In this document: one piece after another, positions 1-62,470 of the stretch
Layout of the letters: every line of letters starts with the position of its first letter
Numbering within the stretch: position 1 is the stretch's first letter
From: a virus
Virus record (IMG/VR): IMGVR_UViG_3300034198_004474
Span: 1-62,470 of that record
Strand: one strand, 5' to 3'
DNA: 62,470 nt
Translations under genes and position numbers: made by a program
Notes under the pieces: model-generated
Database searches by the model: none
Told to the model about the DNA's origin: nothing
The model's input: the letters and a program-made list of their open reading frames with translations, nothing else

Positions 1-428
1 CAAATGCGGTAAGTATGCTCATTGACCCAAGTATGAAAAACATAAGTTCAAGACTTGGTAATGGGAATAAAGTTCGTAACTTCTATGGGAACATCATAGA
101 CCCTCAGAACGCTGAATTTTTAACTGCTGACACTCATGCATTTGCGGCTGGACTAATGTTACCTTCATCCGCAAACGATGCTCAAGAATTTGGTATTTTT
201 GATGGAGGAATGTCTGTGGAATATGCAATTTTTAAAGATGCATACACAGAAATTGCAAAAGAATTTGGTATCTTGCCAAGAGAATTACAATCAATAACAT
301 GGGAAGCTGTAAGAGGCAGTATTAATACCGACAATAGAACACCTTCTATGGTGAAGGACATAAATAAAATATCTGAAGAATTACTAAATAATGGAGAATC
401 AAATGAAAACAGAACAAATGAAATACTC
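1..428. repeat. Left copy of diverged 428-bp terminal direct repeat
   Basis: Bases 1-428 align without any gap to 62043-62470 (constant offset 62042). I count 39 substitutions, so the copies are about 91% identical. The first 67 bases and about the last 30 are identical and the differences lie between. In the shared reading frame only 12 residues change, mostly conservatively. The repeat reaches both window edges exactly, as expected for the overlapping ends of a circular or terminally redundant molecule assembled from two alleles. Confidence 0.9.
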
Positions 429-3400
429 AAAAAATACCCAATCAAATTCTCAAAGGGAGAATGGTCTAACAAACGAGGAATCGTGGCTCAAGCAACAGTT
501 CTTGGGGGCGATGAGGCTTTACAGCAAACAACCGACACAGGAAGAGGCACTACAGTACTTGGAAACTTACGAGGGCAAAATGCCAAAGTGGGTAGCAGAA
601 CTTCCACAGTAGGCAGTAATGAAATTAAATCTAAGCAGTCTAAAACTGAGGATGCTAAGTCTGCATACGAAACTAAACTTGAGGAGAACTTAGAACAGCT
701 AAGAGATGCTTATGGCAATGCAAGAAAGGCTGATACTGGTGTAAGAAAAATAAAAGAAGATAGCCCTACAAGCGTAGGAAACTTTATAAAAAGATTAATC
801 AACGGAGCAACGCCTGAAGCAGCTGCTGAAGCAAAAGCTAAGTTGGTAGAGATGCAGCGTAAGTATCGTAAAGAGAAAGCTGAAATGAGAGCAATGTTGC
901 CAAGAGAAAGAGGGGTTAATTTTGTAATCGAAAAGATAAGCAGAGCAGCAAGGAATGGCGATATAACACAAGATGAAGCAGATTTAGCTATTGACCTTTT
1001 AAGAAAGTCACCTAGTTTATTTGGCGACTTAGCTATTAGTATTACAAGTGGAAATAAAAAAGCTAATGGTGATGGTATTCAAGGGTGGTATCGTGCCGCA
1101 GATGAGTTAGTAAAAATATTCAAGAACCCTAAAGACCCACTAACGGTTACCCATGAACTACTTCACCACACAGAAAGATTTCTTCCACAAGAAGTAAGAG
1201 ATGGAATTATAAAAGAATGGCATGCACAAGTACAAAGACAGGCCGCTGATATTGCTAGTAAGCTAAAAACAGAAACAGACACTGACACTAGACAGCAACT
1301 AACACAGGCATTGCTTTACTTAGGTCTAGCAGAAGCAAGACAGTTAGAGCCAGACTTTTTCAATGCCATGGCTATGGAGAACATAATGAAGAAGTACTTA
1401 GCTGACCATACAGACAGTAATGGTAACTTCAACAAAGGTCTTGGTGACTCTTGGTATCAATTATACAATCCTTCTGAATGGTGGGCGGTTAATGCAAGTA
1501 AAATTTTTAGCGATGCAAAAAATAAACCAGCGTTAAAAACTTGGACAGATAAAGCAAAGGCATTTTATAATTATTTAATTGACAGTATAAAGAAAGTATT
1601 TAAAGGCAATCCAATAGCTAACGTAGAGAAAGGTCTAAAAGCAATACTAGAAGGAAATACTCTTGAAAACATGGAAGGGAATATGCTTGCCGACTCAAAA
1701 CAATCGTTAAACATTAAACAAAAAGAAAGTTTTGAAGAAAGAAATCAAATCAAATCTAAGCAATCAAGAGTATCTGATATCCTAAACGATACATTTAACC
1801 AAGAGGCTAAGAAGACAAAAATAGATAAACTAGACATAAAAGCATTAGCTAAGAAAGTTGTTGATATAGTTAAGTCTAGTAAACTATATACACAAACAGA
1901 TGATATCGAAAGAGACAATGCAATTATTGACTTCTTAAAGAGTAAGGGTATTGTTCAGAAGAGGGTCATTGAGCCTAGAAATAAAAACATAATTTCTGTA
2001 AACGAAGTTACGGCATTAAAAGACCAGATAAGACTAGAGATAAAGGCTGCCAATGATGGAGCTAAGTCTATTGAAGACGCAGTTAAAAAAATTGGAGAAA
2101 TAATAAAAGGTTTAGCTAAAGGGAAGAAGATATCTGTAACATCTGCAAAGGCGTTGATTAATAAGTTCAGCAACATGAACACGGCTAATAAAGACTCTGT
2201 AAAGAACGTGTTAGACTATGCCGAAAAGATATTCAACGATGCAGAGTACGCAGACAAGGTATCCCAAGTAAGGGCTTTAAATTCATTGATGAGGAGGGTT
2301 AAAAACAATGACAAGATACCTTCTCCAACTAGGTCAATAGGTGTTAGCTTTGCTAAAATAAACCCAGAGGCTGTGTCTGACATTGATGCACACTTAGAAG
2401 CCGCAAAGAAAATAAAGGATGCCTTAGTTGGGGTAATTGAAAATGGTTTAAGGTTAAGGAAGGCTATAGATGTAAAAGAGATGCTGAACTATCTTGACAA
2501 AGTTAGTGCAGAACAAGAAACCTATGACGAAAAAAATCCTACTGTAACTAGAGTCGTAGAGCAGCTAGATGAGAAAAAAGCTTTAGAGTACTTAGAAAAT
2601 GAGCATGCTAGTTTATTACAGGTTGTAAAATCTATATACCCTAGTGCTGTTCTAACAGATGCTGAGTTAGCCCAACTGAAAAACTTCTTGAAGATACCTT
2701 TAAGCGACTTTGAGACTATGGAGGAGAAGATAGCGGCAGTAGAAGCACTTGACCACTTTGCAGTTAATGGTGATATGGGTAAGATACCATTCCTTTTAAA
2801 CAACCAGCAGGTAAATGCAAATATCAAAAAAGGGGTAGAAGTAATATTGCCTAAACTTAAATCAGTTAGTCTAATGTGGTTTAGTGAACAGAAAGCTAAG
2901 ATAAGAGGTTGGGTTTATAATAAATTCCTGTATGGTAATACTATTGATTATAATAAGGAACTAGCATACTTCATGAATCAATCTATTAGAAGAATAGATA
3001 ATCTAATTGGTAATTTAAAAACTTATGAGGTATTTGACAATACGTTTAAGGCGATGGCTAGTGGGTATTCAAAATACATATTTAAAATAAAGTCAATGGA
3101 TGCTGATGTTATTTTCCAAAAAGTATTAGCGTCATTCAGGGGTGATATGGAGAAAGCAGTGAAGCATTGCTATAAGATGACAATGTATAAATTACAATTA
3201 GAGTATGAATCTAACATTGGTAATAAGGAAGTAATACCTGCAATTAAACATCTTAACGAAACATTAAACTATGGAAATTTAACTGCAAAAGATAAAGCCA
3301 ATTTAGAACAATTAATTAAAGATTTTTCTACAATAGATGCGACTACTGGGGAACAGAATATAGATACAACTAAAATATGGGATAGTTTTAATAAAGTAGA

Positions 3401-5639
3401 AAAACAAGCAGCTGTATCACTTGCTGAAAACTATGCAAAGCTAACCCCATACGCTCAGCATGTTGCGGTATCTCTTAGAAATGTTTCATTTAATCCAAGA
3501 GCAAATTACATGATGTTAAATGTCGTAAGTACTGGTCAATCTTTATCTGCTTTACCTCCAAGTGCTTCACAGGTTCTAACAGGTAGAGGGTCTACTGAAG
3601 CCCAGACTATTAACCCAAGAGACGGTAACCCTCATCCAATTTCTCTTGACCCGTATAATACATTCAATACTGCGAATAGAGATATTATGATGGACTATTG
3701 TTTATTAAATCCAATTAAAACTGTTGAGGCTATATTTGAGAAGTTAGTAGAAGATACAGCTGGGGATAAGCAAGCTAATGATGTTGCACTGTCACTAGCG
3801 TTTATATTTGACGAAATAACACAGTCTGTCATAAATAGAAGCATTGTAAATTCAGATAAGATAACAGATGGTATCATTAGTTATATAAAGAAAATAGGGG
3901 CTAGATATATGCTTTCTAGGCCAACAAAAGCCACAGGGGAGTTCTCTGGGAACTTATCGTATGCTATTACTAGGTATGGCGAAAATCTAATTGAAGGAAT
4001 GAAAAATAATTCCCTTCAGAGAAACTTTAAGTTGACAACAGTAATGGAAGTATTAAACAGTTATAGTCTTGATAGATTGTATCCACATAAAGGTGAGTCT
4101 GGAGCATTCTTAGACCCTAATAGCTTTGATATAGATGTAAGAGATAAGAAGCACTTTATTGATGGATTTAGTAATGTTGCGCAAATAGCATATTATAATT
4201 CTTTATTGAAGGCACAAAAAGGCGGAGAGTCTATTTCTGATGCATTGATGTCAGTCCCAGATTTATCTATTGGTAGATTTGCTTGGGAAGGAACATTTAG
4301 ATTAACATTTAAGAAAGAGACTGGATTGGATATCGATATGGATAAAATAGCAGCAAAAGATTATGATTATTTAGAGAAATATAAAGATGAATTAGAGAAA
4401 GCTACAACAGAAGCCGACAGAGTTGTTGCAGAGATTGCTAATACAAGAAACCCATTTGTAGGTATTGCTAAAGAGGGCGCTTGGAGAGGAAAGATGTCAG
4501 AAATATTAATAATTAATAACTATATGACATCATTTACAAAAACAGAAAATCAAAATGGTATTGATGCGGCTTATGCAGTAGCCTATGGTGGTAAAATAAG
4601 TAGAATTGATGGCATTAGAACAATAGCAGCAATACTAGTTCGTAGTGGGGTGTATAATGTTGTAAAATATAAAGCTCAGTTAGCTTTATTAGCTATAGGA
4701 TATGGACTTCTTAATGCTGTAACGGGAGGTAGTGATTCTGAAGAAAGACGTAGAAGAAGAGCTAAAGGGATATTAAAATATAATACAGTTGAGAATCCTA
4801 AAATTCAAGGAAGTATTACAGGCATAAAGGATGCTATTACTATGGGTAACGCTATACAAACATACGATAGTGCATGGTTAAAAAAGGCAAATCAATATGT
4901 AGCTCCAGAAGAATCAGCTTCACATTCATTTATGAAAGGCATGGCTCAGGCAGGAGCAGGTATTATATTAGGAAGAAGTTCTGGAGGATTTTATAATAGC
5001 TTAGTTACTGCTCCACTTGTTGAATACGCTAATGAAAAGTATATACATCCAGCAATATCATCTGACCCTTACAATAAGTATAGAGATGGTATAATGTACT
5101 CAAAAGTATATGACCCTAATAGACAAGACCCAGAACTTAATTTTATAGTAGATAACTCTGGAGCATTTCAGCCATTCATGAGAGCCTCAATATCAGCAGT
5201 AAGAACTTTTTATGATAGGTATGGTAGTGAGCTTGCTAAAGTTGAGAAGAAAATAGAAGACCACGAGAGGGGGGTATTGATGAGTAGAGAAGATGCATCA
5301 AGAGCTAAGTATGATGAATTGGTTAAAAGAAGAGATGCCTTGAAAGAAAAAGAAAAATCAATGAAAAGCATGACTTTGAAAAATATAATTGTCGGTGTAG
5401 GTACATCAACTGGAATATTACCAGCTGGGAAAGATATTGATTTTGTTGGAGATAAGATTCTTAAAGATGAATCAGTGCCGAAAGATTGGAATGAAATAGT
5501 AGAGAAGTTTAAGGAGTCACGAAACTATGATGAGGGGACAATGAATCGTAGAAATAGAAACTACAAAGACATGGTTCTCCCAGAAGTATATCAAAAACAT
5601 GTATCACAAGGATACCCAATACCAGCGAAGAAGCCTTAG
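3..5639 (+). CDS. Giant polyvalent protein, C-terminal part (gene starts at 53819)
   Basis: This frame is open from the left edge, so the first ATG inside it (position 15) is not a real start. Joined to the right-edge frame through the 428-bp repeat it forms the last 1,879 residues of a protein of about 4,620. From N to C it holds the end of the DNA glycosylase-like domain, a linker with the EIKSKQSK motif (621-644), a zincin-type HELLH motif (1152-1166), another IKSKQS motif (1749-1766), and then a long helical region with little recognisable enzymology. A hydrophobic stretch occurs near 4675-4730, followed by an Arg-rich cluster. The protein ends in AKKP inside a terminator hairpin. This organisation matches the known class of phage polyvalent proteins, often delivered with the DNA. 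Delivery here is inferred from the gene's place after internal virion genes. Confidence 0.85.
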   Translation, partial: NAVSMLIDPSMKNISSRLGNGNKVRNFYGNIIDPQNAEFLTADTHAFAAGLMLPSSANDAQEFGIFDGGMSVEYAIFKDAYTEIAKEFGILPRELQSITWEAVRGSINTDNRTPSMVKDINKISEELLNNGESNENRTNEILKKYPIKFSKGEWSNKRGIVAQATVLGGDEALQQTTDTGRGTTVLGNLRGQNAKVGSRTSTVGSNEIKSKQSKTEDAKSAYETKLEENLEQLRDAYGNARKADTGVRKIKEDSPTSVGNFIKRLINGATPEAAAEAKAKLVEMQRKYRKEKAEMRAMLPRERGVNFVIEKISRAARNGDITQDEADLAIDLLRKSPSLFGDLAISITSGNKKANGDGIQGWYRAADELVKIFKNPKDPLTVTHELLHHTERFLPQEVRDGIIKEWHAQVQRQAADIASKLKTETDTDTRQQLTQALLYLGLAEARQLEPDFFNAMAMENIMKKYLADHTDSNGNFNKGLGDSWYQLYNPSEWWAVNASKIFSDAKNKPALKTWTDKAKAFYNYLIDSIKKVFKGNPIANVEKGLKAILEGNTLENMEGNMLADSKQSLNIKQKESFEERNQIKSKQSRVSDILNDTFNQEAKKTKIDKLDIKALAKKVVDIVKSSKLYTQTDDIERDNAIIDFLKSKGIVQKRVIEPRNKNIISVNEVTALKDQIRLEIKAANDGAKSIEDAVKKIGEIIKGLAKGKKISVTSAKALINKFSNMNTANKDSVKNVLDYAEKIFNDAEYADKVSQVRALNSLMRRVKNNDKIPSPTRSIGVSFAKINPEAVSDIDAHLEAAKKIKDALVGVIENGLRLRKAIDVKEMLNYLDKVSAEQETYDEKNPTVTRVVEQLDEKKALEYLENEHASLLQVVKSIYPSAVLTDAELAQLKNFLKIPLSDFETMEEKIAAVEALDHFAVNGDMGKIPFLLNNQQVNANIKKGVEVILPKLKSVSLMWFSEQKAKIRGWVYNKFLYGNTIDYNKELAYFMNQSIRRIDNLIGNLKTYEVFDNTFKAMASGYSKYIFKIKSMDADVIFQKVLASFRGDMEKAVKHCYKMTMYKLQLEYESNIGNKEVIPAIKHLNETLNYGNLTAKDKANLEQLIKDFSTIDATTGEQNIDTTKIWDSFNKVEKQAAVSLAENYAKLTPYAQHVAVSLRNVSFNPRANYMMLNVVSTGQSLSALPPSASQVLTGRGSTEAQTINPRDGNPHPISLDPYNTFNTANRDIMMDYCLLNPIKTVEAIFEKLVEDTAGDKQANDVALSLAFIFDEITQSVINRSIVNSDKITDGIISYIKKIGARYMLSRPTKATGEFSGNLSYAITRYGENLIEGMKNNSLQRNFKLTTVMEVLNSYSLDRLYPHKGESGAFLDPNSFDIDVRDKKHFIDGFSNVAQIAYYNSLLKAQKGGESISDALMSVPDLSIGRFAWEGTFRLTFKKETGLDIDMDKIAAKDYDYLEKYKDELEKATTEADRVVAEIANTRNPFVGIAKEGAWRGKMSEILIINNYMTSFTKTENQNGIDAAYAVAYGGKISRIDGIRTIAAILVRSGVYNVVKYKAQLALLAIGYGLLNAVTGGSDSEERRRRRAKGILKYNTVENPKIQGSITGIKDAITMGNAIQTYDSAWLKKANQYVAPEESASHSFMKGMAQAGAGIILGRSSGGFYNSLVTAPLVEYANEKYIHPAISSDPYNKYRDGIMYSKVYDPNRQDPELNFIVDNSGAFQPFMRASISAVRTFYDRYGSELAKVEKKIEDHERGVLMSREDASRAKYDELVKRRDALKEKEKSMKSMTLKNIIVGVGTSTGILPAGKDIDFVGDKILKDESVPKDWNEIVEKFKESRNYDEGTMNRRNRNYKDMVLPEVYQKHVSQGYPIPAKKP
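1090..1260 (+). other. Second zincin-like metallopeptidase motif in the giant protein
   Basis: Within the giant protein the sequence THELLHHTERF gives a canonical HExxH zinc-binding and catalytic motif at 1152-1166. It is preceded by an amphipathic segment (WYRAADELVKIFKN) and followed by an acidic helical region that could supply the third zinc ligand. HExxH domains are recurrent modules of phage polyvalent proteins. Substrate and activity are unknown; self-processing or attack on host proteins are both possible. Confidence 0.55.
3500..4800 (+). other. C-terminal helical region of the giant protein
   Basis: This stretch encodes an alpha-helical segment of several hundred residues with a Pro/Ser/Thr-containing loop (NPRDGNPHPISLDPYN near 3610-3660). 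A hydrophobic segment rich in Ala, Leu and Gly (4675-4730) follows, then a basic RRRRRA cluster. It resembles the large polyvalent protein-associated helical domains found at the C-terminus of such proteins, but I cannot assign a particular family. A membrane or DNA-contact role is only suggested by composition. Confidence 0.35.
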
Positions 5640-19344: not shown

Positions 19345-19346
19345 AT

Positions 19347-19703: not shown

Positions 19704-19720
19704 TTTGTTTTATTTTTATT

Positions 19721-19867: not shown

Positions 19868-19872
19868 GTTAT

Positions 19873-20106: not shown

Positions 20107-20141
20107 GTTATTTAATTTTATTTATGATTGTGAATGTTTGT

Positions 20142-20522
20142 TTAGTTATACTTTGCCAATACCTCCAATACCTTATAGTCTTGTGATGTCTTTGCCCAAT
20201 GGTTTCTGTTCACAAAGTCTATGTGCGTCTTTGTTATTGTGCTATATGATTTATTTTTCCTCCAATCAATCAGTAGCTTATTGTTCAGCATATTACTATG
20301 TTCAGTTGGCTTTCTCTTACTCCTCTCCTTTCGTAGTGCTAGAATATCTCTAGTGTTTATTTTTTTGGCTTCTGAGTAAAATATCATTGCAGATAGCTTT
20401 CCTATCCTAGTCCTTGCGTCATACTTAAACCTATGACCCAATAGCATATTGCTAGTGTTAAACAAATGGCTGAATGCAATCTTTCTAGCTTTTTTGATTT
20501 CTTCTTTAGTGTAATTTTTCAT
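20142..20522 (-). CDS. Basic hypothetical protein
   Basis: A 126-residue protein, strongly basic, helical, with several Arg/Lys clusters (KKARKIAF, RKERSKRKPT). It is probably a nucleic-acid-binding protein by composition. It lies just downstream of the glycosylase-like gene with 16 bases between them. No family recognised. Confidence 0.6.
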   Translation of the reverse strand: MKNYTKEEIKKARKIAFSHLFNTSNMLLGHRFKYDARTRIGKLSAMIFYSEAKKINTRDILALRKERSKRKPTEHSNMLNNKLLIDWRKNKSYSTITKTHIDFVNRNHWAKTSQDYKVLEVLAKYN

Positions 20523-20538
20523 CTTGTTTAATTTTGTT

Positions 20539-51818: not shown

Positions 51819-52403
51819 ATGGGAGTAGAAGTAGCATTAGGTGTCGCTGGACTTGGATTAAGTGCAATACAAGGAGTCGCTGGATTAGTCCAAGAAAAAA
51901 AGGCTAGACAAGCCGCAGAGGCAGCATATAATAACTTAAAGAATATGCCGAAACAAGCCAACGCTATGAATGCAGTTGGCGTTCCTGTAAACATGTACGA
52001 CCAAGCACAGGCTAACATTAACCAGCAATCAGCGAACATGATAGATGCCGCTAGAGAGTCTGGGGCTGCTGCTGTGTTGGGTAGTGCTGGAACCATTCAG
52101 GGAGGTATAAAAAATGCTGAGATGGACTTAGCAACCAGAAAGGCACAAGATGCGCTTAATTTAAGCTTAGAGAAGCAAAAGACTCAGCAACAAATAGATA
52201 GCGATTATTATAATTTCCAAAGACAGCTAGAGGCTTCTCAAATGGAAGGTGCTCAAACAGCCGCAGCACAGGGAGCTACTCAGTTCCAGCAAGCTCTTGG
52301 TGGAGCTGCTCAAAACTTAACGTCTTTAGGCGTTGCTTCATATACTGGTAAAGGTAAAAAGGGTGGCGGTAAAAAAGGTAAGGCTACAATAGAAGGACAA
52401 TAA
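51819..52403 (+). CDS. Internal virion / DNA ejection protein
   Basis: A 194-residue Ala/Gln/Gly-rich helical protein. The N-terminus (GVEVALGVAGLGLSAIQGVA) is glycine-rich and hydrophobic and could insert into a membrane. A long Gln-rich coiled region follows (KQKTQQQIDSDYYNFQRQLE), then a basic KGGGKKG tail. This is the layout of small internal core proteins of podoviruses. The gene lies one base after the GNAT gene. Confidence 0.65.
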   Translation: MGVEVALGVAGLGLSAIQGVAGLVQEKKARQAAEAAYNNLKNMPKQANAMNAVGVPVNMYDQAQANINQQSANMIDAARESGAAAVLGSAGTIQGGIKNAEMDLATRKAQDALNLSLEKQKTQQQIDSDYYNFQRQLEASQMEGAQTAAAQGATQFQQALGGAAQNLTSLGVASYTGKGKKGGGKKGKATIEGQ

Positions 52404-52404
52404 T

Positions 52405-53799
52405 ATGACATACGCAGGATATAAACCAAATGAAACAGCAAGTCTAGGGGCAATAACTGCAACTGGTATAGACGCTATTACTAAAATAAACTTAGAAAGA
52501 GAAAAGTTAGATGCAGCAAGACAGGTTAAGAAAGATGCCTTAGCAGCCAAAGCTGCTCAGGATAAGGAAAAGCAAGCCGCAAAAGAAGCAGCTGAATTAG
52601 AGAAAGAGAAAAACTCTACTAAAGAGAAACTTTCTAAAAATGAGGGGAAAACCCCATTTACCATAAACTTACAAGCAAATATGGGGGAAGTTGGGGTAAA
52701 AAATATAGACTTAGACCCATCTTCACAGAATGCACTAATTGGTCAGTCAAGCACATACCATGCGCTTCTTGGGAACCAAGACGCAACCACAACAAAATTA
52801 GCAGAAAATAAAAATCCTTCCATGCAGGCAACTTGGAGATATGGAAGAACTATTGGCGATTTTCAGAAACAAACAGTAAGTACAATCGTTGAAGGGAAAG
52901 GTAACGATGCTAAGTTTATTTTCAAGAACGAGAAAGGAGAAACTGTATCAATGGATGGACTTGGGTCAATAATGATTAATGTATCAAATACAATGCCTAA
53001 CTTAGATGAGGATTATAATAATTGGTATGCACAAATAGGTGAACAGCAAAAAGAAGTAGGCAGAACGAGTAAGCTTGATGTAGGAGCCCAAAATAACTTT
53101 ACTACTAAAAAAGATGAAATTAAGAGTTTAATCCTTGCCGACAGAGAGAAGCTTGGAGATAGATATTATTTAGTATCTCAAAAACTAGGAAAGACTCCAA
53201 TATTCTATAGTGAAGGCGATGACCAAGAAGCATTGAGGGTAAAAAGTGGGGCAGTTAATCCTGAATATATAAAAATGGTAACAACCCAAAACGGTGAGAC
53301 CTATGCTGAATTAACTCAAACCCAAAAAGATGCAATGAAAAAAGATGTAGATGACGAGCTTGGTATAAGAGTTAAAAAGAGTCAGCATACACGACCAGAG
53401 GGCGGAGGTAATATAACTATTACACAACAGATTGGAGAGGCTAAAACTAAAGAGGCAGGGAAATATTATGATAAGGTAATAAAAGGAAATAATCCTACAG
53501 AGGCGCAATTTGTTAGGGGAGCACAAGCAGCTGGGAATATATTAGCAGGGACTACTGCTCCATACTATGACCCTATTACAAAAACAACTAAGGACACTCC
53601 AGTATATCAAAATGATGGTAAAGGGAATATAAAGATACTATATGAAGATAAATATGGTAATATAGTACAATATAAATCAAACCCAAGTATGACTAAAGAG
53701 GAGCTAGTAGCAGACTTAGAACAATTTTATTCTTTTAGTAAAGTAAAGAGTGGGGCAGAAGCTGTTGCTACAACTCAAGCAGTAACAGGTAAAAAATAA
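52405..53799 (+). CDS. Internal virion protein with coiled coil
   Basis: A 464-residue protein. It starts TYAGYKPNETASLGAITATG and runs into a Lys/Glu/Ala-rich coiled coil (residues about 30-75). A central and C-terminal region follows with no enzymatic motif. Position between the small core protein and the giant gene suggests it is part of the ejection machinery. Codon use is like the neighbours. Confidence 0.65.
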   Translation: MTYAGYKPNETASLGAITATGIDAITKINLEREKLDAARQVKKDALAAKAAQDKEKQAAKEAAELEKEKNSTKEKLSKNEGKTPFTINLQANMGEVGVKNIDLDPSSQNALIGQSSTYHALLGNQDATTTKLAENKNPSMQATWRYGRTIGDFQKQTVSTIVEGKGNDAKFIFKNEKGETVSMDGLGSIMINVSNTMPNLDEDYNNWYAQIGEQQKEVGRTSKLDVGAQNNFTTKKDEIKSLILADREKLGDRYYLVSQKLGKTPIFYSEGDDQEALRVKSGAVNPEYIKMVTTQNGETYAELTQTQKDAMKKDVDDELGIRVKKSQHTRPEGGGNITITQQIGEAKTKEAGKYYDKVIKGNNPTEAQFVRGAQAAGNILAGTTAPYYDPITKTTKDTPVYQNDGKGNIKILYEDKYGNIVQYKSNPSMTKEELVADLEQFYSFSKVKSGAEAVATTQAVTGKK

Positions 53800-53818
53800 A
53801 TAAAACAAACAATAAATA

Positions 53819-56800
53819 ATGGAATTACAAGACGGAAACAGCGCCCCTAAAGGGAGCACAAAGCACAACGAAAGTGATGTATTACTTTACAATAAGTTGA
53901 CATCTGAGTTGCCAGATTTAAAAATAGCACCTGTAAAGAATGCAGATGAAATAGATGATAATAATTTTAGCTTCTTACAGTATAAGAAAGCTAAGTCTAA
54001 TTTTGCTGACATGCCTGATGTGGCATTACCTACAGACATAACTCCAGCACACATGGCTGTAGTTGCTAAGGCAGCAGGCATTAGTTATTTTAATAATTTA
54101 GTTGATAATGTAAAGGATGATAAAGATGTTAAAAAAAGAGGCTTTAAGAAATTAACATATACTGATGTTATTAATCCAGATGACGAAAGTTATTTAGAAC
54201 AAAAAAATGCAGATATAATAAGCGAAAAGGCTACTAAATTAGGGAAGTCAGTAGGGATTGACTATATGGAAGCTATACCTACTGCTGGTACCCAACAAAA
54301 AAATCCTTTAGCATATACTAATTATGGTCAATTAAATCAAATAAATGAACGACTTACTGAAAAAGCTAATAATAAAAATTTAGCAATTGTAAATTCTAAG
54401 ATAAAAAAAATAAATGCATCTCTTCCTAAAGAGGAAAGGATGCAAGAATTGACTTCTTTTAAAGAGTATGAATCTCAAGAACCTATAATAAAAGAAAAAG
54501 CTAAAAGAGCAGATTTATTAAATACTAAAAAGAGTAATGATATATTTTTAAAAGGAGTAAATGAGGCTGCTAAAAAAAGTGGTATACGTCAGTTCGTAGA
54601 TATTGCAGATTATAATAAAAACTATGAGCCAGAAACACTAAAAAATATAAATAAGGAAGCAAAGGAAAATGGTACTCGTGAATATACATCGCTTGAAGAT
54701 TATAACAAAAATTTCGAGAAAGAAACACTAAAGAGTATAAATGATAAAGCGAAGAAAAATGGCACTCGTGAATATACGTCACTTGAAGAATACAACAAAA
54801 GTGTATCGGTAAAAATAGCACCTAAAAAAATTGTTTATTCTAGGGAAGAACAGAAAAAACAAATAGTAAAAGCTGGTAAAGCTTCTGGTACTATCCCAAA
54901 ATGGGTATCTGATGAAGATGCAGTAAAAATGCTATCAAAATATGAGGGCAACTTTACCCCTGCTCAGGTTGCTGGTGTCGCACAAACTGCAAGAACATTT
55001 AATGAAAATATAACAAAAAAAGAAGCAGCTAGGAAACTAACAAAGCCAGTACCTAGTTTAAGTGAAACACTACAATTTGGTTTTGCTTCAGTTAATCCTA
55101 TTAACATAAAAGCTCCAATCCCACCTGCCCAAACAATCGCCCCTAAGCGTGTATATTCTGAGGAAGATGTAAATATGGCATTTCTTGAATCGGGGAGATT
55201 GTCTGGGGTTATCCCAAAAGGATTATCTAATAAAGATGCATTAAAATTAATAGCAGAAAAAAGACTCCAACTTGACCCAAAAACAAAAGATATTATTTCT
55301 GAAGCAGTAGTAACATCAAAGGAAAAAAGAAAAGAGATAGCTACTGCTTCACATGAAGAAATATTAAATAATGCAGCATTTAGAACACAAGAGTTATTAA
55401 GTGCTGATACTCCAACTCAAAATCTTTATAAGCAAAGTAGAGAAGGTAAGGTTGCGGATATTATCAATAGAATACAAAGCGGCCTTCAAGGAGAGGTAGG
55501 CAATGAGACTGTTTCTGAAGCAGAGTGGAAATACCTAAAAGAAGTTGCTCCAAAAGCAGCAGAATCATTATGGAAAGAAATTAATCCTAATAATAGCAAT
55601 AAATTAAGCGATGTAATTGCTGTCTATAAGGATAAAGAAAAAGCATATAAGGTTACATCGGCTAACTCTAGGGCAAAGTCAATATTTGCAGCATTGCCTC
55701 AAGATTGGCTTGATGAGAATGGACAAATATCTGATGCCAGCTTATTAGAGAAGCATAAAGAATTTAATGACAACTATGCTCAATCTCTTATTGCTTTGGA
55801 AGAAAAGTATCCTATGCAATATGCTATGATTAAAACAGCAGATGGGATGCAGAATAGACCAATAGGTAGAGGCTATGAGTATGCGGCAGAAAAAAGAGAA
55901 TTAGAAGATAAAAGAGCACAGGTAAATAACATTATTGCAGAAGCTAATGGGATAATGTTTGTTAGACAGGTTGATAAAACAACTGGTAAACAAAAAAATG
56001 CTTTGCTAAGTCCAGATGTAATAGGAGAAAAAATATTTAAATTGCAATCCCCTGACCTATATAAAGTATATGTAAAAGGTGGAAAGACAGACAGAGGTAC
56101 AAAAGAAGAGATTAAAAGATTAGGCATTAATGCATTATATGCAAGTAATGATAAAAATGCCATTGAGTTAGCATCTGTAGATGAAAGAAAACTAAATGAA
56201 ACAAGTTTAGATTTAGAAAATGATACATATAATAGGATAGGAGCAGAGGTTTACAAGCAAGGTAGTTGGGTAAAATATATTGGTACTCGTAGGAGAGATA
56301 TAGATGAATTAGATAAGATAGTAGAACAATTGCCATACCAAAATAGAAAAATGTGGTATGGTAAATTAAGAGCGATTGAAGAGAGTCAAACATTCGGGAC
56401 TAATATCCCAATGGGCGGTGCTCTAAATAGTGCAGTTTATGGGTTTGGTAAAACAGCAGCATCTACAGTAAATACATTATCTGGTGCAGTTGGATTCAGA
56501 ACTGATAGCGATATAGCAAACGATGCTCTTGCTGGGCAAGATAATAAATATTCAGTTGTAGGAGAAACAAAAACAGCTCAAAAAATAAAATCACAATTAG
56601 AATATAAATTAAGTAATAAAGAACAGCTAACATATAGTGAATTACAGGATTTAGAAAATGCAAAAAATTTACTAGGCACTAAGACATTTACATCAAAATT
56701 CACAGATAAAGGATTTGAATTAATAGGACAAGTTACATTTCAAGGGCTTGTTGCAAGAGGGCTTGGTGGGTTGTCTGCTGGTGCATTAGGGGAGATAGGC

Positions 56801-59800
56801 TTGCTATCTGAAGCAGGATTGATATCTGAAGAAGCAGCAATTGTTGCTGGGTCTGGAGAATTTGGAACAGCGATGTCAGGAGCAACTACCATAGGTGAAA
56901 TAGGTGTTAGTAAAACAACTCTTGATACTTTAGCAAATGCTTATGTAGCTTATGCTTCTAGTTTAGACCAAGCAAAACAAGAGGCAGTTTTATTAATGCC
57001 AGATAGCAAAGCAAAACAAGAAATATATGCAAATGTTGTAGGGTTATTAAATGCAGCAACGGCACATTTATTCCCAGAGCAAAAGTTATTTGACCCTTTA
57101 AAGAAAGAATTATCTGCAACTATTACAAATATTGTTAATGATTTATCTGCATCAAAGCTTAGCAAGGAAGCATTATCTGGTTACGTTAAAAAAGCATTAT
57201 TAGCATCTAAGGCTTTTGGTATCGCAGTAATAAAAAATAACCAAAAAGAATCAGCTGAAGAGGTAGCAGGGCAAATAGGTACAAGTATTGCATTAGCAAT
57301 ATTAGCACCAGATAAATTTAACAACAAAGAAGAGTTTGATAAAGTTTTAGATACATACGTTCAAACTACAGTAGATGGTACTTTGTTATCACTATTTGCT
57401 GGAGGGAAAGAATATTTCTCTAACGTAGTAGGTATACCTTTATTGTCAAAAGTAGGTACAGATGAAAATGTATATAATAAAGTAATACAAGGTATTAATT
57501 CCCAAGTATCTAATAAAGAAATAAGTGAAGCAGAGGGAGAAGAAAAAAAATATATAGCTAATACGATTAGATATATATATAAAAAATCAATACCTAAAGT
57601 TGCTGAACTTTCACCTAATTTAAAAGAGAGAGACATACAGAAGTATGCAATAGTATTAGCAAATGAATATGTTGTTAGAAAAAAAATAGATACAGAAAAA
57701 GACCCTGTTATAAAAGCTAAATTAGAGGCTCAAGTAAAGGATAGTGAAGCTAAAAGAGAAGCTATAATAGATGAGAAACTAACAACTGTAAATAACTATG
57801 AATTAGTTACAATTGAGGAGGCAAATAAGATAGCAAAAGCTGAAGCAGATAATGGCCAAATAGTAATTACTAACGCAGATGGTACTGTAACAACAACACC
57901 TACTAAAACTATAGATGGTGTAGGTACTTATGAGTTTGATAATAAATTATATGTTCAAGATAAAGATGGTAATATAACCTATGAAAATGGTGTTATGGCA
58001 CCAATAGCAGAGCAAGAAAAGGTTAAAAAAGAAGGATTATTTACTCCGCAGACAGCTACGACTAAAATAGCTGATATAAACAAGGAATTAGAAACATTAA
58101 CCATTGGGCAGAACGAGACTAAAGAAGAAATAGATGCAAAGAATGCAAGGAAAGTTGAGTTGCAATCTGAACTTAAAACATTAGAGCAGGAGGTTGCTAC
58201 TGATGCTATTGCTAAAAAAGCTGCTAAAAATGGCACTACAGTTGAATTTGAGACTAAGAAAGCTGATATAGAAAAAAGAAGAAAAGACGAGCTATCTACC
58301 AGCGATTATAAAAAGCAAGTAGGTCTAAATTTCAGTAATGGCAAGTATCAGATAAGTACATTTGATGGAGAAGAGGATAGTTTTTCTCAAGATGTAGAGC
58401 TTACAAAAGAAGAGAAAAATGAGTTAAGCAAAATAGATGCAGACTCAAAAGCTGATGGAGATAGCCCTAGCATAGTAGCTAGAAAGGCTGAATTATCTGA
58501 AAAAATTATAAATAGGTTGGGCATTTATGGTGTTACAGCTAAATCCACTGATGTAATTAATGCTAAATATGATAAAGAATTAGCTACACTAGAAACTTCT
58601 GTTAACCCTGCTGCCATATCTGCATTGAAAGAAGTAGAAGTATTAAGGACTGAAGAGCAAAAAGAACTTGATACTAAAATAGAAAATGCAGAGCAGTATA
58701 GAGTAAATGGTAAGGTAAATAGAACTAAGCTTACAAGCGATGCAGATAGAAAGGCGTTTGATGAGGTTTATGCTAAATATGATAAGTTAATTGCCCCATT
58801 ATTAGAGAAGGCAAAACCTAAGATAAAAACAAAACTAGAGGCTTTACCAACAGGGACAAGAGCTTCTGATGGGGAAGCTGCTAGAAAGGTTCATGCACCT
58901 TTATTCTCAGCTGCAAAAAGAGCATTAAAAGTATTAAATCAATTATTCCCTAGTGTAGATATACATTTCCATGATAACAATGAAGATTTCCAAGAAGTTT
59001 TGAATGTTACAGCAGGAGGGAAGCCAGCTAGAACTACTCAAGGTAACTTTACATATTCAAAGGATGGTAAAACAATTCGTATTGATATAAATTTAGCTAG
59101 TGGGGCTACAACAGAAACGGTTGTACATGAAGCGGCACATGCTATACTATTCAAGGCATTTGGAGATACCCCAAGACTTTTTAAATACTTTAAAAATCAA
59201 GTAGCAAGAAATATTGGTTTTACTAAAAGCGCAAAATTAAAAAAGTTTATAAGGAACTATGAAGATATAGAAAAGCCTGAAGAGTACCTTGTACAATTAG
59301 GAGCCATTTTAAAAGATGGAGAGAATATAGAGCCTACTGTATTTAGACGTATAGCCGAAGCTATTAATAAGATAGTTTTTAAATATACAGGCGGCAAATT
59401 TAAACCGTTTGAAGATGTAAAGAAGAGTAACGATAAAGTTAGATATTTTGCTTCTTTAGTAAATGCCATTAAGACTGGTGATTTAGGCAGCATAGACATT
59501 AATTCACAGTCACAATTTAGGAGAAATCAAACGGGTGGTTCCAAGCAATCAAGAGGTGGTATTACTGCAACTGATATGAAGTCTATGACGGTTGCTGATA
59601 ATGGCGATTTATTATTCTTTCATTATGGTGATATTAAGGGGTCTAAAATAGACGCAAGGAAAGGAACACCAAAAGCATATACAACCGACAAGCGTGTATA
59701 TACAGCTAACTACTACTACACTAACGAGAGCGATAGAGAAGGAATGGTTGGCGGAAAAGTAAATGTTGTAAGAGTTCCAGCCGATAAAGTATATAATTTT

Positions 59801-62470
59801 AATAAAGATGTTTTAGGATTATTTGATGAGGCTAAGAAAAACTCAGAGGCTCATTCAAAAGGCCAAGCATTTTCTCCTAATAGACAAGCCGATTTTATTG
59901 CTCAATTAGCAGCTAAGAACGGTTTTGATATGGTTGTCGCCAAGTGGGGTAATGGGTACCGTGCTGAGTCTCCTAAGGCTCTTCCTATCGATGCAGCGTT
60001 GACCAAGCAGATGCGAACTAACGGAAGTTTATCAACTGCCGCTGTAGATGATAAATTAAACCAAGACATATACAATGCAGCTGCATCTAAAGCTAATGGC
60101 AATAGTGAGAAATACAGAAGCGCATTTTATGGGATAAAAGATATTACCGCTAAAGACATTATGGAGCATCCTATTTTGTCAAGAGGTATTCCTAAAAAGT
60201 TAGCAGATAAATATAATGGTGGGGAAATTAAATCTAAGCAAAGCTTAAAGGCTGGAGACAAGGTTAAAATAGAAGGGGTAAGTGTAACAATACCTAATGA
60301 AGCACAGCAGGATTTATTAAAACAAGAAAGAACTGCAAAGAGTTACTTTGATGAAAAGGTAAGGTTAATGGAACCTTCTCCATTGTCAAAAGAAGAGATT
60401 AAGTCTATTTTAAATAGAGATGATATAGCTATACTTACGGGAACAAACCCTGATGGGAATGCTGTTGCCGATAATACTAATAATCTATTAAATAAAAAAG
60501 CAGAGGATTGGCTTAAAAGAAATGGGTATACATACCATCAGGTTACTGGGAAGTACGGACAGACAGAGTCATCGTTTCTTGTAGAGGGGATGACAGGTAA
60601 TGTAGCCTTAGAGTTTGCTAAAATATTCAAGCAAGACAGTGTCCTTCAATCTGAAGGGTTAATATATAGGGAAGGTACTATAGAAAAAAGAATCGCTGAT
60701 GGTGATGCCTTTGGTCTTGATGTAACAGAGCCAGATGCTGACTATGTAAGCGCAATAAAGACCAAAACTGGTGAGGTTATAGGGTTTCAATTTGGTATCG
60801 ACTTAGGTAACAAGGTGCAATATGAAATTAAATCTAAACAGTCTAAAACTGAGGATGCGTTGAAGATTAATAGCATTGAAGATACATACGAAAAATATCA
60901 CGTAGCTCCTGAATCAGGACATACAAAAATAGATGTCACAGGAAGCGAGCCGATAAAAAAAGGAGAAACATTTGGAACGGTAACCTATTCTAATAAAGAA
61001 GAAGGAGATGTTGTAGTGGATTCTTTTTCTATTAATGATATTGATAAATTATCAAAATCGAGTTCAGGATTTATAACAACCGCAATAAACCTTGGAAGAG
61101 GATTTATTTATTCTAAACCATCCCCGAAGGAAATAACTGAACAATTATTCGTTAAGGGGAAAAAATACAAAACCCTTTCCGATGAAAACAAAGCAAAAGT
61201 AGATAAGGAAAGGGCAAAACAAACCACTAAGTTTAATTTGCCTTGGTCAAATAAAAAAGCAGGGAAAAACCTTTCTGACTATGTAGAGAGATACAGAGAC
61301 AAGAGACCTAGCGAAAATAAAATAGCCGATGAATTATTTAAAAAGGGTATAGTTAAGGGAGTAAAATACAAAGAACTTTCTGTAGAAGACAAAGCAAAGG
61401 TAAGAGCCGAGAGGAAGGAACAAAGCAAGTCAATAAAGGTTGAACCAAAGCCATCCGATTATTACGATGTAGTTAAAAAGAAATCAAAGGATATAATAAA
61501 TTCTTTTAAGGAAGAGGTGAAAAATAATCTTCGTGCGTTATATAATAATGTATCTGAAGATTTTAAAGAAACATCAAGACAGTGGTATGATGGAGCAAAT
61601 AGATTAGCACAGGGTATATCAAAGTCATATGGAATATCCCTTGAGCAATCTGCTGGTATACTTGCCGCTTTAAGCCCTAAGAATAATTGGTTTAATAATA
61701 TATCTGCTGCGGAGAGAGTTATACGTGCTTGGGCAGACCATCAAAACACTACTGTCACTAAAGAGATGGTTGCTCGTACTATTGCTTACATGGAACGCAA
61801 TGGGGACGCTCCGTTTGCAAAAGATATCAGAGCTGCATTTGCTAAAACAAAAGGACGGTCAATATCTGAATTAACAAAGGAATATAAAAAAACAGGTGCC
61901 CCCGAGATGTTAGAAGCTATTGGCATCACGATGAGAATAATCGACCAATCTGAGTACAGCCCAACAGTTTATTCTGTGTCACCCGAAGGGTTTATTGATG
62001 GTAAGTATGGTGTGATTGGTTGGTCTGGTGGAGCAGCATTAACAAATGCGGTAAGTATGCTCATTGACCCAAGTATGAAAAACATAAGTTCAAGACTTGG
62101 TAATGGGAACAAGGTTCGTAACTTCTATGGGAATATTATAAACCCTGAGAATGCTGAATTTTTAACTGCTGACACACACGCATTTGCGGCCGGACTAATG
62201 TTGCCTGCCTCTGCTGATGAAGCCCAAGAATTTGGTGTTTTTAAAGGAGGAATGTCTGTTGAGTATGCAATTTTTAAGGATGCATACACAGAAGTTGCAA
62301 AAGAATTTGGCATCTTACCAAGAGAACTACAATCAATAACATGGGAAGCTGCAAGAGGTAGTATTAATACCGACAACAGAACACCATCTATGGTGAAGAA
62401 CATCAATAGAATATCTGAAGAATTGTTAACTAATGGAGAATCAAATGAAAACAGAACAAATGAAATACTC
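53819..62470 (+). CDS. Giant polyvalent protein, N-terminal part (runs off the window)
   Basis: The frame starts at ATG 53819-53821 and has no stop to the window edge (2,884 codons). Its continuation is 3-5639, giving about 4,620 residues. In order: a lysine-rich N-terminal region with a 30-residue repeat, a helical body, a hydrophobic zone (about 860-1200), a long coiled-coil region (about 1200-1700), a zincin motif (HEAAH, residues 1770-1774), an ART-like region (about 1917-2090), a DUF3293-like region (about 2145-2330) and a glycosylase-like region (about 2565 onward). IKSKQS motifs lie between several of them. The gene closes the virion operon, so the protein is probably packaged and injected. 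Size and composition match phage polyvalent proteins. Confidence 0.85.
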   Translation, partial: MELQDGNSAPKGSTKHNESDVLLYNKLTSELPDLKIAPVKNADEIDDNNFSFLQYKKAKSNFADMPDVALPTDITPAHMAVVAKAAGISYFNNLVDNVKDDKDVKKRGFKKLTYTDVINPDDESYLEQKNADIISEKATKLGKSVGIDYMEAIPTAGTQQKNPLAYTNYGQLNQINERLTEKANNKNLAIVNSKIKKINASLPKEERMQELTSFKEYESQEPIIKEKAKRADLLNTKKSNDIFLKGVNEAAKKSGIRQFVDIADYNKNYEPETLKNINKEAKENGTREYTSLEDYNKNFEKETLKSINDKAKKNGTREYTSLEEYNKSVSVKIAPKKIVYSREEQKKQIVKAGKASGTIPKWVSDEDAVKMLSKYEGNFTPAQVAGVAQTARTFNENITKKEAARKLTKPVPSLSETLQFGFASVNPINIKAPIPPAQTIAPKRVYSEEDVNMAFLESGRLSGVIPKGLSNKDALKLIAEKRLQLDPKTKDIISEAVVTSKEKRKEIATASHEEILNNAAFRTQELLSADTPTQNLYKQSREGKVADIINRIQSGLQGEVGNETVSEAEWKYLKEVAPKAAESLWKEINPNNSNKLSDVIAVYKDKEKAYKVTSANSRAKSIFAALPQDWLDENGQISDASLLEKHKEFNDNYAQSLIALEEKYPMQYAMIKTADGMQNRPIGRGYEYAAEKRELEDKRAQVNNIIAEANGIMFVRQVDKTTGKQKNALLSPDVIGEKIFKLQSPDLYKVYVKGGKTDRGTKEEIKRLGINALYASNDKNAIELASVDERKLNETSLDLENDTYNRIGAEVYKQGSWVKYIGTRRRDIDELDKIVEQLPYQNRKMWYGKLRAIEESQTFGTNIPMGGALNSAVYGFGKTAASTVNTLSGAVGFRTDSDIANDALAGQDNKYSVVGETKTAQKIKSQLEYKLSNKEQLTYSELQDLENAKNLLGTKTFTSKFTDKGFELIGQVTFQGLVARGLGGLSAGALGEIGLLSEAGLISEEAAIVAGSGEFGTAMSGATTIGEIGVSKTTLDTLANAYVAYASSLDQAKQEAVLLMPDSKAKQEIYANVVGLLNAATAHLFPEQKLFDPLKKELSATITNIVNDLSASKLSKEALSGYVKKALLASKAFGIAVIKNNQKESAEEVAGQIGTSIALAILAPDKFNNKEEFDKVLDTYVQTTVDGTLLSLFAGGKEYFSNVVGIPLLSKVGTDENVYNKVIQGINSQVSNKEISEAEGEEKKYIANTIRYIYKKSIPKVAELSPNLKERDIQKYAIVLANEYVVRKKIDTEKDPVIKAKLEAQVKDSEAKREAIIDEKLTTVNNYELVTIEEANKIAKAEADNGQIVITNADGTVTTTPTKTIDGVGTYEFDNKLYVQDKDGNITYENGVMAPIAEQEKVKKEGLFTPQTATTKIADINKELETLTIGQNETKEEIDAKNARKVELQSELKTLEQEVATDAIAKKAAKNGTTVEFETKKADIEKRRKDELSTSDYKKQVGLNFSNGKYQISTFDGEEDSFSQDVELTKEEKNELSKIDADSKADGDSPSIVARKAELSEKIINRLGIYGVTAKSTDVINAKYDKELATLETSVNPAAISALKEVEVLRTEEQKELDTKIENAEQYRVNGKVNRTKLTSDADRKAFDEVYAKYDKLIAPLLEKAKPKIKTKLEALPTGTRASDGEAARKVHAPLFSAAKRALKVLNQLFPSVDIHFHDNNEDFQEVLNVTAGGKPARTTQGNFTYSKDGKTIRIDINLASGATTETVVHEAAHAILFKAFGDTPRLFKYFKNQVARNIGFTKSAKLKKFIRNYEDIEKPEEYLVQLGAILKDGENIEPTVFRRIAEAINKIVFKYTGGKFKPFEDVKKSNDKVRYFASLVNAIKTGDLGSIDINSQSQFRRNQTGGSKQSRGGITATDMKSMTVADNGDLLFFHYGDIKGSKIDARKGTPKAYTTDKRVYTANYYYTNESDREGMVGGKVNVVRVPADKVYNFNKDVLGLFDEAKKNSEAHSKGQAFSPNRQADFIAQLAAKNGFDMVVAKWGNGYRAESPKALPIDAALTKQMRTNGSLSTAAVDDKLNQDIYNAAASKANGNSEKYRSAFYGIKDITAKDIMEHPILSRGIPKKLADKYNGGEIKSKQSLKAGDKVKIEGVSVTIPNEAQQDLLKQERTAKSYFDEKVRLMEPSPLSKEEIKSILNRDDIAILTGTNPDGNAVADNTNNLLNKKAEDWLKRNGYTYHQVTGKYGQTESSFLVEGMTGNVALEFAKIFKQDSVLQSEGLIYREGTIEKRIADGDAFGLDVTEPDADYVSAIKTKTGEVIGFQFGIDLGNKVQYEIKSKQSKTEDALKINSIEDTYEKYHVAPESGHTKIDVTGSEPIKKGETFGTVTYSNKEEGDVVVDSFSINDIDKLSKSSSGFITTAINLGRGFIYSKPSPKEITEQLFVKGKKYKTLSDENKAKVDKERAKQTTKFNLPWSNKKAGKNLSDYVERYRDKRPSENKIADELFKKGIVKGVKYKELSVEDKAKVRAERKEQSKSIKVEPKPSDYYDVVKKKSKDIINSFKEEVKNNLRALYNNVSEDFKETSRQWYDGANRLAQGISKSYGISLEQSAGILAALSPKNNWFNNISAAERVIRAWADHQNTTVTKEMVARTIAYMERNGDAPFAKDIRAAFAKTKGRSISELTKEYKKTGAPEMLEAIGITMRIIDQSEYSPTVYSVSPEGFIDGKYGVIGWSGGAALTNAVSMLIDPSMKNISSRLGNGNKVRNFYGNIINPENAEFLTADTHAFAAGLMLPASADEAQEFGVFKGGMSVEYAIFKDAYTEVAKEFGILPRELQSITWEAARGSINTDNRTPSMVKNINRISEELLTNGESNENRTNEIL
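54581..54805 (+). repeat. 90-bp tandem repeat in the giant gene
   Basis: Units start at 54581, 54671 and 54761 with a strict 90-base period, and the third is partial. Each encodes a 30-residue helix-turn segment with the motif G(T/I)R(E/Q)(Y/F).(S/D)(L/I).(D/E)YNK. The second and third are nearly identical in protein and the first is older. A degenerate further pair, GK.SG.IPKW..DEDAVKML and GRLSGVIPKGLSNKDALKLI, lies downstream. These are protein repeats, not a CRISPR array. Confidence 0.75.
56401..57420 (+). other. Hydrophobic region of the giant protein
   Basis: Residues about 860-1200 contain several glycine/alanine-rich hydrophobic stretches, for example GALNSAVYGFGKTAAS, LVARGLGGLSAGALGEIGLL and GTSIALAILAP. 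A segment ESAEEVAGQIG resembles those in internal virion proteins. It could cross or perturb a membrane during ejection. No enzymatic motif. Confidence 0.4.
59090..59250 (+). other. Zincin-like metallopeptidase motif in the giant protein
   Basis: TTETVVHEAAHAILFKAFG contains HEAAH (59126-59140) in an amphipathic helix preceded by a beta strand (IRIDINLA), as in zincin peptidases. An acidic segment (YEDIEKPEEYLVQLGAIL) about 45 residues later may supply the third ligand. This is the first of two zincin motifs in the same polypeptide. Confidence 0.6.
59570..60100 (+). other. ADP-ribosyltransferase-like region of the giant protein
   Basis: The segment LLFFHYGDIKGSKIDARKG, then AYTTDKRVYTANYYYTNES and GKVNVVRVPADKVYNF resembles the N-terminal core of phage polyvalent ART domains: an F.H.(G/T) strand, then a T....A..Y helix and a V..V strand. 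A catalytic Glu cannot be assigned by eye. The region lies between a GGSKQSR and an EIKSKQS motif. Confidence 0.4.
60245..60820 (+). other. DUF3293-like region of the giant protein
   Basis: The pattern IAILTGTNPDGNAVADNTN, a helix, GYTYHQVTGKYG, TESSFLVEGM and then ALEFAKIFKQDSVLQSEGLIY follows DUF3293 (ITA.NP...... N..L, then a G..........E.SF.V... A..LA..F.Q.AV). DUF3293 is also found in phage polyvalent proteins. Function unknown. It is bounded on both sides by EIKSKQS motifs. Confidence 0.55.
61500..62470 (+). other. DNA glycosylase-like region of the giant protein
   Basis: From about residue 2565, RQWYDGANRLAQGISKSYG and ILAALSPKNNWFNN are followed about 165 residues later by FLTADTHAFAAGL (D2785, H2787). 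These take the place of the helix-hairpin-helix core and the VDTHV motif of endonuclease III-type glycosylases, and of the protein encoded at 20539. The insertion between them is longer here. The diverged terminal repeat lies inside this region but keeps TADTHAF unchanged. Confidence 0.45.
62043..62470. repeat. Right copy of diverged 428-bp terminal direct repeat
   Basis: See the left copy at 1-428. The frame of the giant gene continues through the repeat in register with 3-5639 (62057 and 15 are equivalent codon starts). Plain end-to-end joining without collapsing the repeat would put a stop after three codons, so the overlap model is the one that preserves the gene. Confidence 0.9.

What the first reader, a model, noticed from the sequence alone, without database searches (positions are those of the whole stretch)
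53819..62470. Giant multi-domain protein of about 4,620 residues spanning the contig ends
The frame opened at 53819 has no stop to the right edge and continues in the same frame from the left edge to 5639. The joined protein carries two HExxH motifs, ART-like, DUF3293-like and DNA glycosylase-like regions, a hydrophobic zone and a long helical C-terminus. It would take up 22% of the genome and directly follows internal virion genes. This combination could be an injected all-in-one effector; the exact architecture looks new to me.
Basis: partly seen in the sequence, partly recalled or inferred. Interest (0 to 1): 0.85.

Follow-up and report, generated by a model that had tools for sequence, protein, structure and literature searches.

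The report
Giant phage polyprotein with punctuated cassettes
A phage related to viruses of Flavobacterium devotes 22% of its genome to one 4,620-residue protein, probably injected into the host, in which exchangeable enzyme modules are separated by a repeated short tag that looks like a protease cut site, giving a testable answer to how such giant proteins are broken into working parts.

Summary
An independent public contig (L004) carries the gene unbroken as one 4,620-aa ORF, with window 52045-62470 running into 1-7191. The genome is a circle of about 62,042 bp. The window's last 428 bp are a second strain haplotype (91%) of positions 1-428, not a second copy. A relative (L005) has a 4,558-aa ORF; isolated Flavobacterium elemoviruses have a distant 3,694-aa homologue in the same place, annotated 'structural protein'. 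So it is a new member of the known class of phage polyvalent proteins, in the ejection-protein slot of a podovirus-like genome.

What appears new is how it is built. All six copies of the tag SKQS (four as IKSKQS) lie between a zincin-like peptidase domain and the C-terminal region, most at module borders: ART-like, DUF3293, DUF7178, second zincin. Relatives keep the plan but swap the modules. Three further lineages use variant tags (KIKAQK, T[KR][AG]QK, PKSKQ[SQ]). Across 22 relatives, tag-like motifs are 8.5-fold denser in that interval than elsewhere. Tags are conserved in protein but not in codons; those modelled lie in low-confidence linkers. Best reading: processing sites of a self-cleaving injected polyprotein. 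Cleavage is inferred, not shown.

The parts
53819..62042 (+). Giant gene, first part (residues 1-2742); continues at window base 1 across the contig ends
   Evidence: continuous 4,620-aa ORF in L004
1..5639 (+). Giant gene, second part (to residue 4620 and stop)
62043..62470 (+). Second strain haplotype (91%) of window 1-428; assembly redundancy, not a second copy
   Evidence: L004 is 428/428 identical to the start copy, 389/428 to this one
53819..58798 (+). N-terminal region (residues 1-1660), probably virion/ejection part; weak hydrophobic stretch near 56795-56851
   Evidence: same start MELQDG in L023; hydropathy; no Pfam or PHROG match
58805..59482 (+). Zincin-like peptidase domain 1 (residues 1663-1888), HEAAH at 59126-59140
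   Evidence: HExxH plus downstream E(E) near-invariant in 13 homologues; weak Pfam SprT-like; weak SprT/metallopeptidase fold matches
59540..59551 (+). Tag 1, SKQS (GGSKQS)
59549..60226 (+). ART-like module (residues 1911-2136)
   Evidence: 18 homologues, invariant H, Y, RA; the model that contains it matches an ART-PolyVal-like phage protein in BFVD, E 1.6e-9
60227..60244 (+). Tag 2, IKSKQS
   Evidence: pLDDT <50 in the model
60245..60826 (+). DUF3293 module (residues 2143-2336)
   Evidence: Pfam E 6.2e-8; elemovirus homologue 37% identity, E 3e-29
60827..60844 (+). Tag 3, IKSKQS
   Evidence: pLDDT <50
60845..61453 (+). Uncharacterised stretch in the DUF7178 cassette (residues 2343-2545)
   Evidence: no clear match
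61454..62042 (+). DUF7178 module, first part; continues at 1-446 (residues 2546-2890)
   Evidence: Pfam DUF7178 E 6.6e-27; all-helical high-confidence model
1..446 (+). DUF7178 module, second part
   Evidence: Pfam E 2.8e-9
624..641 (+). Tag 4, IKSKQS
642..1694 (+). Zincin-like cassette 2 (HELLH at 1152-1166), related to a region of Erwinia phage Pavtok/PEp14 giant 'DarB-like' proteins
   Evidence: 30-32% identity, best E 1e-22
1695..1706 (+). Tag 5, SKQS
1749..1766 (+). Tag 6, IKSKQS, directly before the C-terminal region
   Evidence: KIKAQK and TTRGQK at the same place in relatives
1767..5636 (+). C-terminal region (residues 3331-4620), conserved in all close relatives and partly in elemovirus gp18
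60822..60858 (+). 37-nt near-identical repeat at tag 3 (partner 619-655 at tag 4, 97%)
   Evidence: D5
51819..52403 (+). T7 gp14-like internal virion protein candidate, two genes upstream
   Evidence: Pfam PF24072 E 0.0011, below its curated cut-off
52405..53799 (+). 464-aa protein in the slot between the gp14-like gene and the giant (gp15-like position)
   Evidence: order matches elemovirus gp20-gp19-gp18

Best explanation
The gene encodes a virion-borne polyvalent protein of an elemovirus-like podovirus. It occupies the last, gp16-like position of an internal-virion (ejection protein) gene set and is probably delivered into the host with the DNA. Its plan is: N-terminal region, zincin peptidase, a series of effector cassettes each set off by a short Q-containing tag ((I/V)xSKQS here), then a large C-terminal region. 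Proposed mechanism: after assembly or after ejection, the built-in zincin (or a partner protease) cuts at the tags. This releases the ART-like, DUF3293, DUF7178 and second zincin cassettes as separate proteins that act on the host or protect the incoming genome, while the ends serve virion structure and ejection. Because the tag is the only thing a cassette must carry, cassettes can be exchanged between phages. Shown: the continuous gene, the modules, the tags, their placement, their conservation in protein but not in codons, and cassette exchange. Inferred: packaging and injection (about 0.85), that the tags are processing sites (about 0.5), that the zincin is the protease (about 0.4).
For: Continuous ORFs in L004 and L005. 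Same place in elemovirus, gp20-gp19-gp18. Module order differs from elemovirus. SKQS six times in 4,620 aa against 0.08 expected, P 3.5e-10 (5.6e-5 after all 4-mers), four times in L023, three in L024. Different cassettes between the same tags in L023 and L024. Ten different 12-mers encode 19 SKQS sites. All three tags in model A lie at pLDDT <50 beside domains at about 80-95. Variant tags bound the same modules in other lineages: KIKAQK or IKSQK around DUF7178, LPD23 and the GNAT-containing module; T[KR][AG]QK four times in L144 (P 5e-9); PKSKQ[SQ] three times in L143 (P 1e-8), the first two on either side of the ART-like module. Tag-like motifs lie between zincin and C-terminal region 8.5 times more densely than elsewhere (27 in 17,390 aa against 10 in 54,803 aa; P 5e-10), against about 1-5 times for permuted motifs. 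An HExxH motif is found in the tagged giants examined. Unbiased flank test: 8 of 35 modules at p<=0.05, binomial 2.7e-4.
Against: No cleavage product or virion proteomics was seen. Many related giants with a zincin lack a recognisable tag (15 of 22 have fewer than two motifs between zincin and C-terminal region), so tagging is not a general rule of polyvalent proteins. Elemovirus gp18 has the zincin but no repeated tag. The motif regex was drawn from part of the same data; without the SKQS, KIKAQK and L144 lineages the enrichment falls to 2.95 (P 0.03). A second flank test at the C-terminal junction gave only 2 of 46 at p<=0.05. N4 vRNAP, which has an HExxH domain, is packaged unprocessed (PMC5512222). 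Not every tag is a clear domain border: tags 5 and 6 lie 20 residues apart.
Confidence: 0.55

Rival explanations
1. An injected, unprocessed all-in-one effector: the tags are only flexible linkers that let domains unfold and refold one by one while passing the narrow tail.
For: N4 vRNAP (~3,500 aa, HExxH domain) is packaged and ejected as one chain and is thought to unfold (PMC12633501, PMC5512222). Tags lie in low-confidence linkers.
Against: A linker needs no exact sequence, but SKQS is kept through codon changes, recurs in distant relatives and sits almost only between zincin and C-terminal region.
Confidence: 0.25
2. The tags are DNA seams: short homologous stretches that promote cassette shuffling, with no role in the protein.
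For: A 37-nt near-identical repeat links tags 3 and 4. Cassettes are clearly exchanged between phages.
Against: Nineteen sites use ten different DNA words for SKQS, including AGC against TCN serine codons; other lineages keep a similar peptide with different sequence.
Confidence: 0.12
3. The tags are cut, but by another protease (virion maturation or host enzyme), and the zincins are themselves effectors.
For: The window protein has two zincins, one of them inside a cassette; Iyer et al. (PMC5512222) allow MPTases as effectors. A glutamine before the cut would be unusual for a zincin (own knowledge).
Against: SKQS does not occur in other window proteins, so a general virion maturation protease is not indicated; the tags start just downstream of zincin 1 in relatives.
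Confidence: 0.3
4. Assembly artefact: two separate genes, or a larger genome with a duplicated DUF7178 half.
For: Terminal repeat is only 91% identical.
Against: L004 and L005 show the single continuous gene; the terminal mismatch is haplotype variation.
Confidence: 0.02

Closest known systems
Elemovirus gp18 (Flavobacterium phage vB_FspP_elemoE_6-9C, YP_010109083.1, 3,694 aa, 'structural protein', DUF3293)
   Same: Same position at the end of the virion gene set; homologous zincin 1, ART-like, DUF3293 and C-terminal regions
   Different: Module order differs, N-terminal region and most cassettes differ, no DUF7178 or zincin 2 match, no repeated tag
Polyvalent proteins of phages and conjugative elements (Iyer et al. 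2017, PMC5512222)
   Same: Very large, many unlike domains in one chain, zincin MPTase, ART-type domain, late virion gene context, structural match to ART-PolyVal and LPD-containing proteins; LPD23 cassette in relative L166
   Different: DUF3293, glycosylase and linker are not words of that paper; no repeated inter-module tag or cut site is described in the passages found by searching it
N4 virion RNA polymerase (~3,500-aa ejected protein)
   Same: Giant ejected podovirus protein with an HExxH domain and a large C-terminal domain (PMC12633501)
   Different: No RNA polymerase match here
Erwinia phage Pavtok/PEp14 giant 'DarB-like' protein
   Same: Zincin 2 region is homologous
   Different: Methylase/helicase domains annotated for that protein are not found here
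T7 gp14-gp15-gp16 ejection proteins
   Same: Gene order: gp14-like candidate, a ~460-aa protein, then the giant
   Different: No transglycosylase domain found; much larger

Membership tests
Phage polyvalent protein | Two or more domains of disparate activity in one polypeptide | tested here: met
   zincin, DUF3293, DUF7178, ART-like, second zincin in one 4,620-aa ORF
Phage polyvalent protein | Zincin-like MPTase with HExxH and downstream E | tested here: met
   alignment of 13 homologues; no significant PDB hit by sequence
Phage polyvalent protein | Known polyvalent-specific domains (ART-PolyVal, LPD) | tested here: inconclusive
   No such Pfam hit in the protein itself; model with the ART-like module matches an ART-PolyVal-like protein at E 1.6e-9 and an LPD protein at 8e-6 in BFVD; LPD23 in relative L166; ART-PolyVal below cut-off in L023
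Phage polyvalent protein | Late/virion gene context | tested here: met
   follows terminase, portal and structural genes and a gp14-like gene
Phage polyvalent protein | Injected into the host | not testable with these tools
   needs proteomics or labelling
ADP-ribosyltransferase (module 59549-60226) | ART fold | tested here: inconclusive
   AcrIF11 (6kyf) and MbcT (6fkg), ART-type folds by my own knowledge, are among top PDB matches but at E 0.5-0.9; BFVD support
DNA glycosylase (DUF7178) | HhH-GPD fold | tested here: inconclusive
   all-helical model and conserved DTH, but no PDB sequence match, no fold match, no HhH-GPD Pfam hit listed among 36 members
N4-like vRNAP | RNA polymerase domain | tested here: not met
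   no match in Pfam or PHROGs
T7 gp16 | Lytic transglycosylase domain | tested here: not met
   no match
DarB | Methylase-helicase dyad in the same chain | tested here: not met
   no match in the giant

The most novel reading that the evidence does not exclude
Phages deliver a self-cleaving polyprotein: a built-in zincin cuts at lineage-specific glutamine tags that punctuate interchangeable effector cassettes, so that any module flanked by the tag can join the injected payload. The tags would be the missing cut sites of the MPTases found in many polyvalent proteins.
Probability: 0.35. Interest if true: 0.85.

Novelty: new variant of a known kind. Interest (0 to 1): 0.62.

Why it matters
Zincin peptidases are the most common domain of polyvalent proteins, and whether, when and where they cut has been left open since the class was defined (PMC5512222). 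A short, repeated, exchangeable tag beside the zincin gives exact predicted cut sites that mass spectrometry or a reporter assay can test. If true, tags would also let one split giant phage proteins into their real functional units and find unknown counter-defence cassettes by their brackets.

Tried and rejected
Exact circular overlap: rejected, the ends differ by 39 of 428 bases. Duplicate domain or larger genome: rejected by L004 and L005. Plasmid relatives of the ART-like/DUF3293 stretch: none. RNA polymerase, transglycosylase or methylase-helicase in the giant: none. DNA glycosylase for DUF7178: four tests, none conclusive. PDB fold matches of both models: none significant. A universal tag in all polyvalent proteins: rejected. 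[FY]S[LRK] stood out in only one DUF7178 giant, the general repeat scan showed no comparable tag in most giants whose results I could read (output partly cut), and the C-terminal junction test was at chance overall. (I/L/M)LFQ in Rhodobacteraceae phage LS06-2018-MD07 (five matches to the regex against 1.1 expected, four of them FQ) is suggestive only. Zincin 2 relatives beyond the window's own genus in IMG/VR: none with the patterns used. Host from bacterial genomes: only one contig of an Aliivibrio MAG, uninformative.

Full report
WHAT IS THERE. The window ends share 428 bp at 91% identity. This would be odd for a simple circular overlap, so I looked for the gene elsewhere. Contig L004 from a public metagenome holds it unbroken as one ORF of 4,620 codons. 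L004 aligns to window 52045-62470 and then, without a gap, to 1-7191. It is identical to the window over 52045-62025 and over 1-428, and differs only in the last ~444 bases of the window (41 mismatches) and at a few later sites. The right tip of the window is thus a second haplotype of the same place, the genome is a circle of about 62,042 bp, and the gene is 22.3% of it. L005, at roughly 83-97% identity, has a 4,558-aa version.

RELATIVES AND PLACE. Known Flavobacterium elemoviruses carry a 3,694-aa 'structural protein' with DUF3293 at the same place, after terminase, portal and structural genes and two shorter genes. Here the gene two upstream of the giant is a weak match to T7 gp14, an internal virion protein (below the curated cut-off; the elemovirus gp20 gave no such match). 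The giant thus sits where T7 has gp16. Comparison with elemovirus gp18 shows homologous zincin 1, ART-like, DUF3293 and C-terminal regions, but in a different order.

MODULES. Zincin 1 has HExxH and a near-invariant downstream E(E) in 13 homologues; fold search returns SprT-type and other metallopeptidases, none significant. The ART-like module has an invariant H, Y and RA. The model that contains it matches an ART-PolyVal-like phage protein (E 1.6e-9) and other polyvalent-domain proteins in BFVD; AcrIF11 and MbcT, which I know as ART-type folds, are among the top but non-significant PDB matches. DUF3293 and DUF7178 are Pfam matches. DUF7178 is all-helical in the model and occurs in many giant phage proteins, but I could not show that it is a glycosylase. 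Zincin 2 is related to the giant proteins of Erwinia phages Pavtok and PEp14.

THE TAG. The peptide SKQS occurs six times in the protein against 0.08 expected (P 3.5e-10; 5.6e-5 after correction for all 4-mers), four times as IKSKQS. The copies separate the ART-like, DUF3293, DUF7178 and zincin 2 modules and precede the C-terminal region. In L023 and L024 the tags are kept but the modules between them differ: L023 has a GNAT-containing module and an ART-PolyVal-like module bracketed by IKSKQS, L024 another 550-aa module (the GNAT label is by eye and has no Pfam support). Nineteen SKQS sites use ten DNA spellings, so the protein sequence is what is kept. SKQS is absent from the other window proteins. 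The three tags in the modelled stretch lie at pLDDT below 50 beside domains at about 80-95.

OTHER LINEAGES. Relatives with 25-45% identity carry related tags at the same places. KIKAQK or IKSQK bounds DUF7178, the GNAT-containing module, an LPD23 module and others in L014-L017, L157, L159, L160, L162, L163 and L166. T[KR][AG]QK occurs four times in L144 (P 5e-9). PKSKQ[SQ] occurs three times in L143, the first two on either side of the ART-like module (P 1e-8). In several KIKAQK proteins and L144 the last tag stands at the same place before the C-terminal region as IKSKQS does here. In 22 non-redundant giants with a zincin upstream of this C-terminal region, tag-like motifs are 8.5 times denser between the two than elsewhere (P 5e-10). 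Permuted motifs give about 1-5 times, so part of the ratio is composition. Without the strongest lineages the ratio drops to 2.95 (P 0.03), and 15 of 22 giants have fewer than two motifs in the interval. An unbiased test for any six-residue match between the two flanks of a module found 8 of 35 modules at p<=0.05 (binomial 2.7e-4), four of them IKSKQS or IK[AS]QK tags. The same idea at the C-terminal junction gave 2 of 46. So tagging is real and recurrent in several related lineages, but not universal.

HOW IT LIKELY WORKS. Iyer et al. proposed that zincin MPTases of polyvalent proteins may cut the chain, before packaging (P1 DdrB is processed) or after injection (PMC5512222). I found no cut site described there. 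The tags have what such sites need: exact short sequence, low-confidence (probably flexible) setting, module borders, placement downstream of the zincin, and presence where cassettes are exchanged. I therefore propose a self-processing injected polyprotein. Shown: gene, modules, tags, placement, exchange. Inferred: injection, cutting, and which protease cuts. Main rivals are uncut linkers, a different protease, and DNA-level recombination seams; the codon evidence speaks against the last.

NOVELTY. The protein is a new member of a known class with a known distant homologue; the punctuated cassette plan appears to be undescribed in the literature I could search, which lacks many subscription papers. 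The original elemovirus genome paper was not found in the library, so I could not check what the annotation 'structural protein' rests on.

Noticed in passing
window 26510-28099: Phage-encoded GroEL-like chaperonin (PHROG E 2e-128); elemoviruses also carry groEL/groES. A link to folding a 4,620-aa protein is speculation.
   Followed up: no
window 54603-54692 and 54693-54782: Two tandem 90-nt copies (81%) inside the N-terminal part of the giant gene.
   Followed up: no
window 17546-20556: Four dispersed 40-nt AT-rich repeats in the minus-strand region, possibly shared regulatory or start sites.
   Followed up: no
window 8592-10199: SWI2/SNF2-like helicase with a weak VRR nuclease match; neighbours are a BT4734/primase-type protein (10203-12560) and a PAPS-reductase-like protein (7197-8084).
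   Followed up: no
window 40511-41953: Virion structural protein with a weak match to the crassvirus major capsid protein (Pfam PF23898, E 6e-4).
   Followed up: no
L060-L137: DUF7178 occurs in many giant phage proteins and also in short (470-890 aa) proteins; 235 candidate loci in IMG/VR.
   Followed up: partly
L057 (OP947163.1), residues about 1343-2395 of its giant protein: (I/L/M)LFQ peptides bracket an ART-PolyVal-like module and DUF7178 in a Rhodobacteraceae phage, a possible analogue of the tag.
   Followed up: partly
L220: A relative of the C-terminal region lies in a contig assigned to an Aliivibrio MAG, possibly phage contamination or prophage.
   Followed up: no
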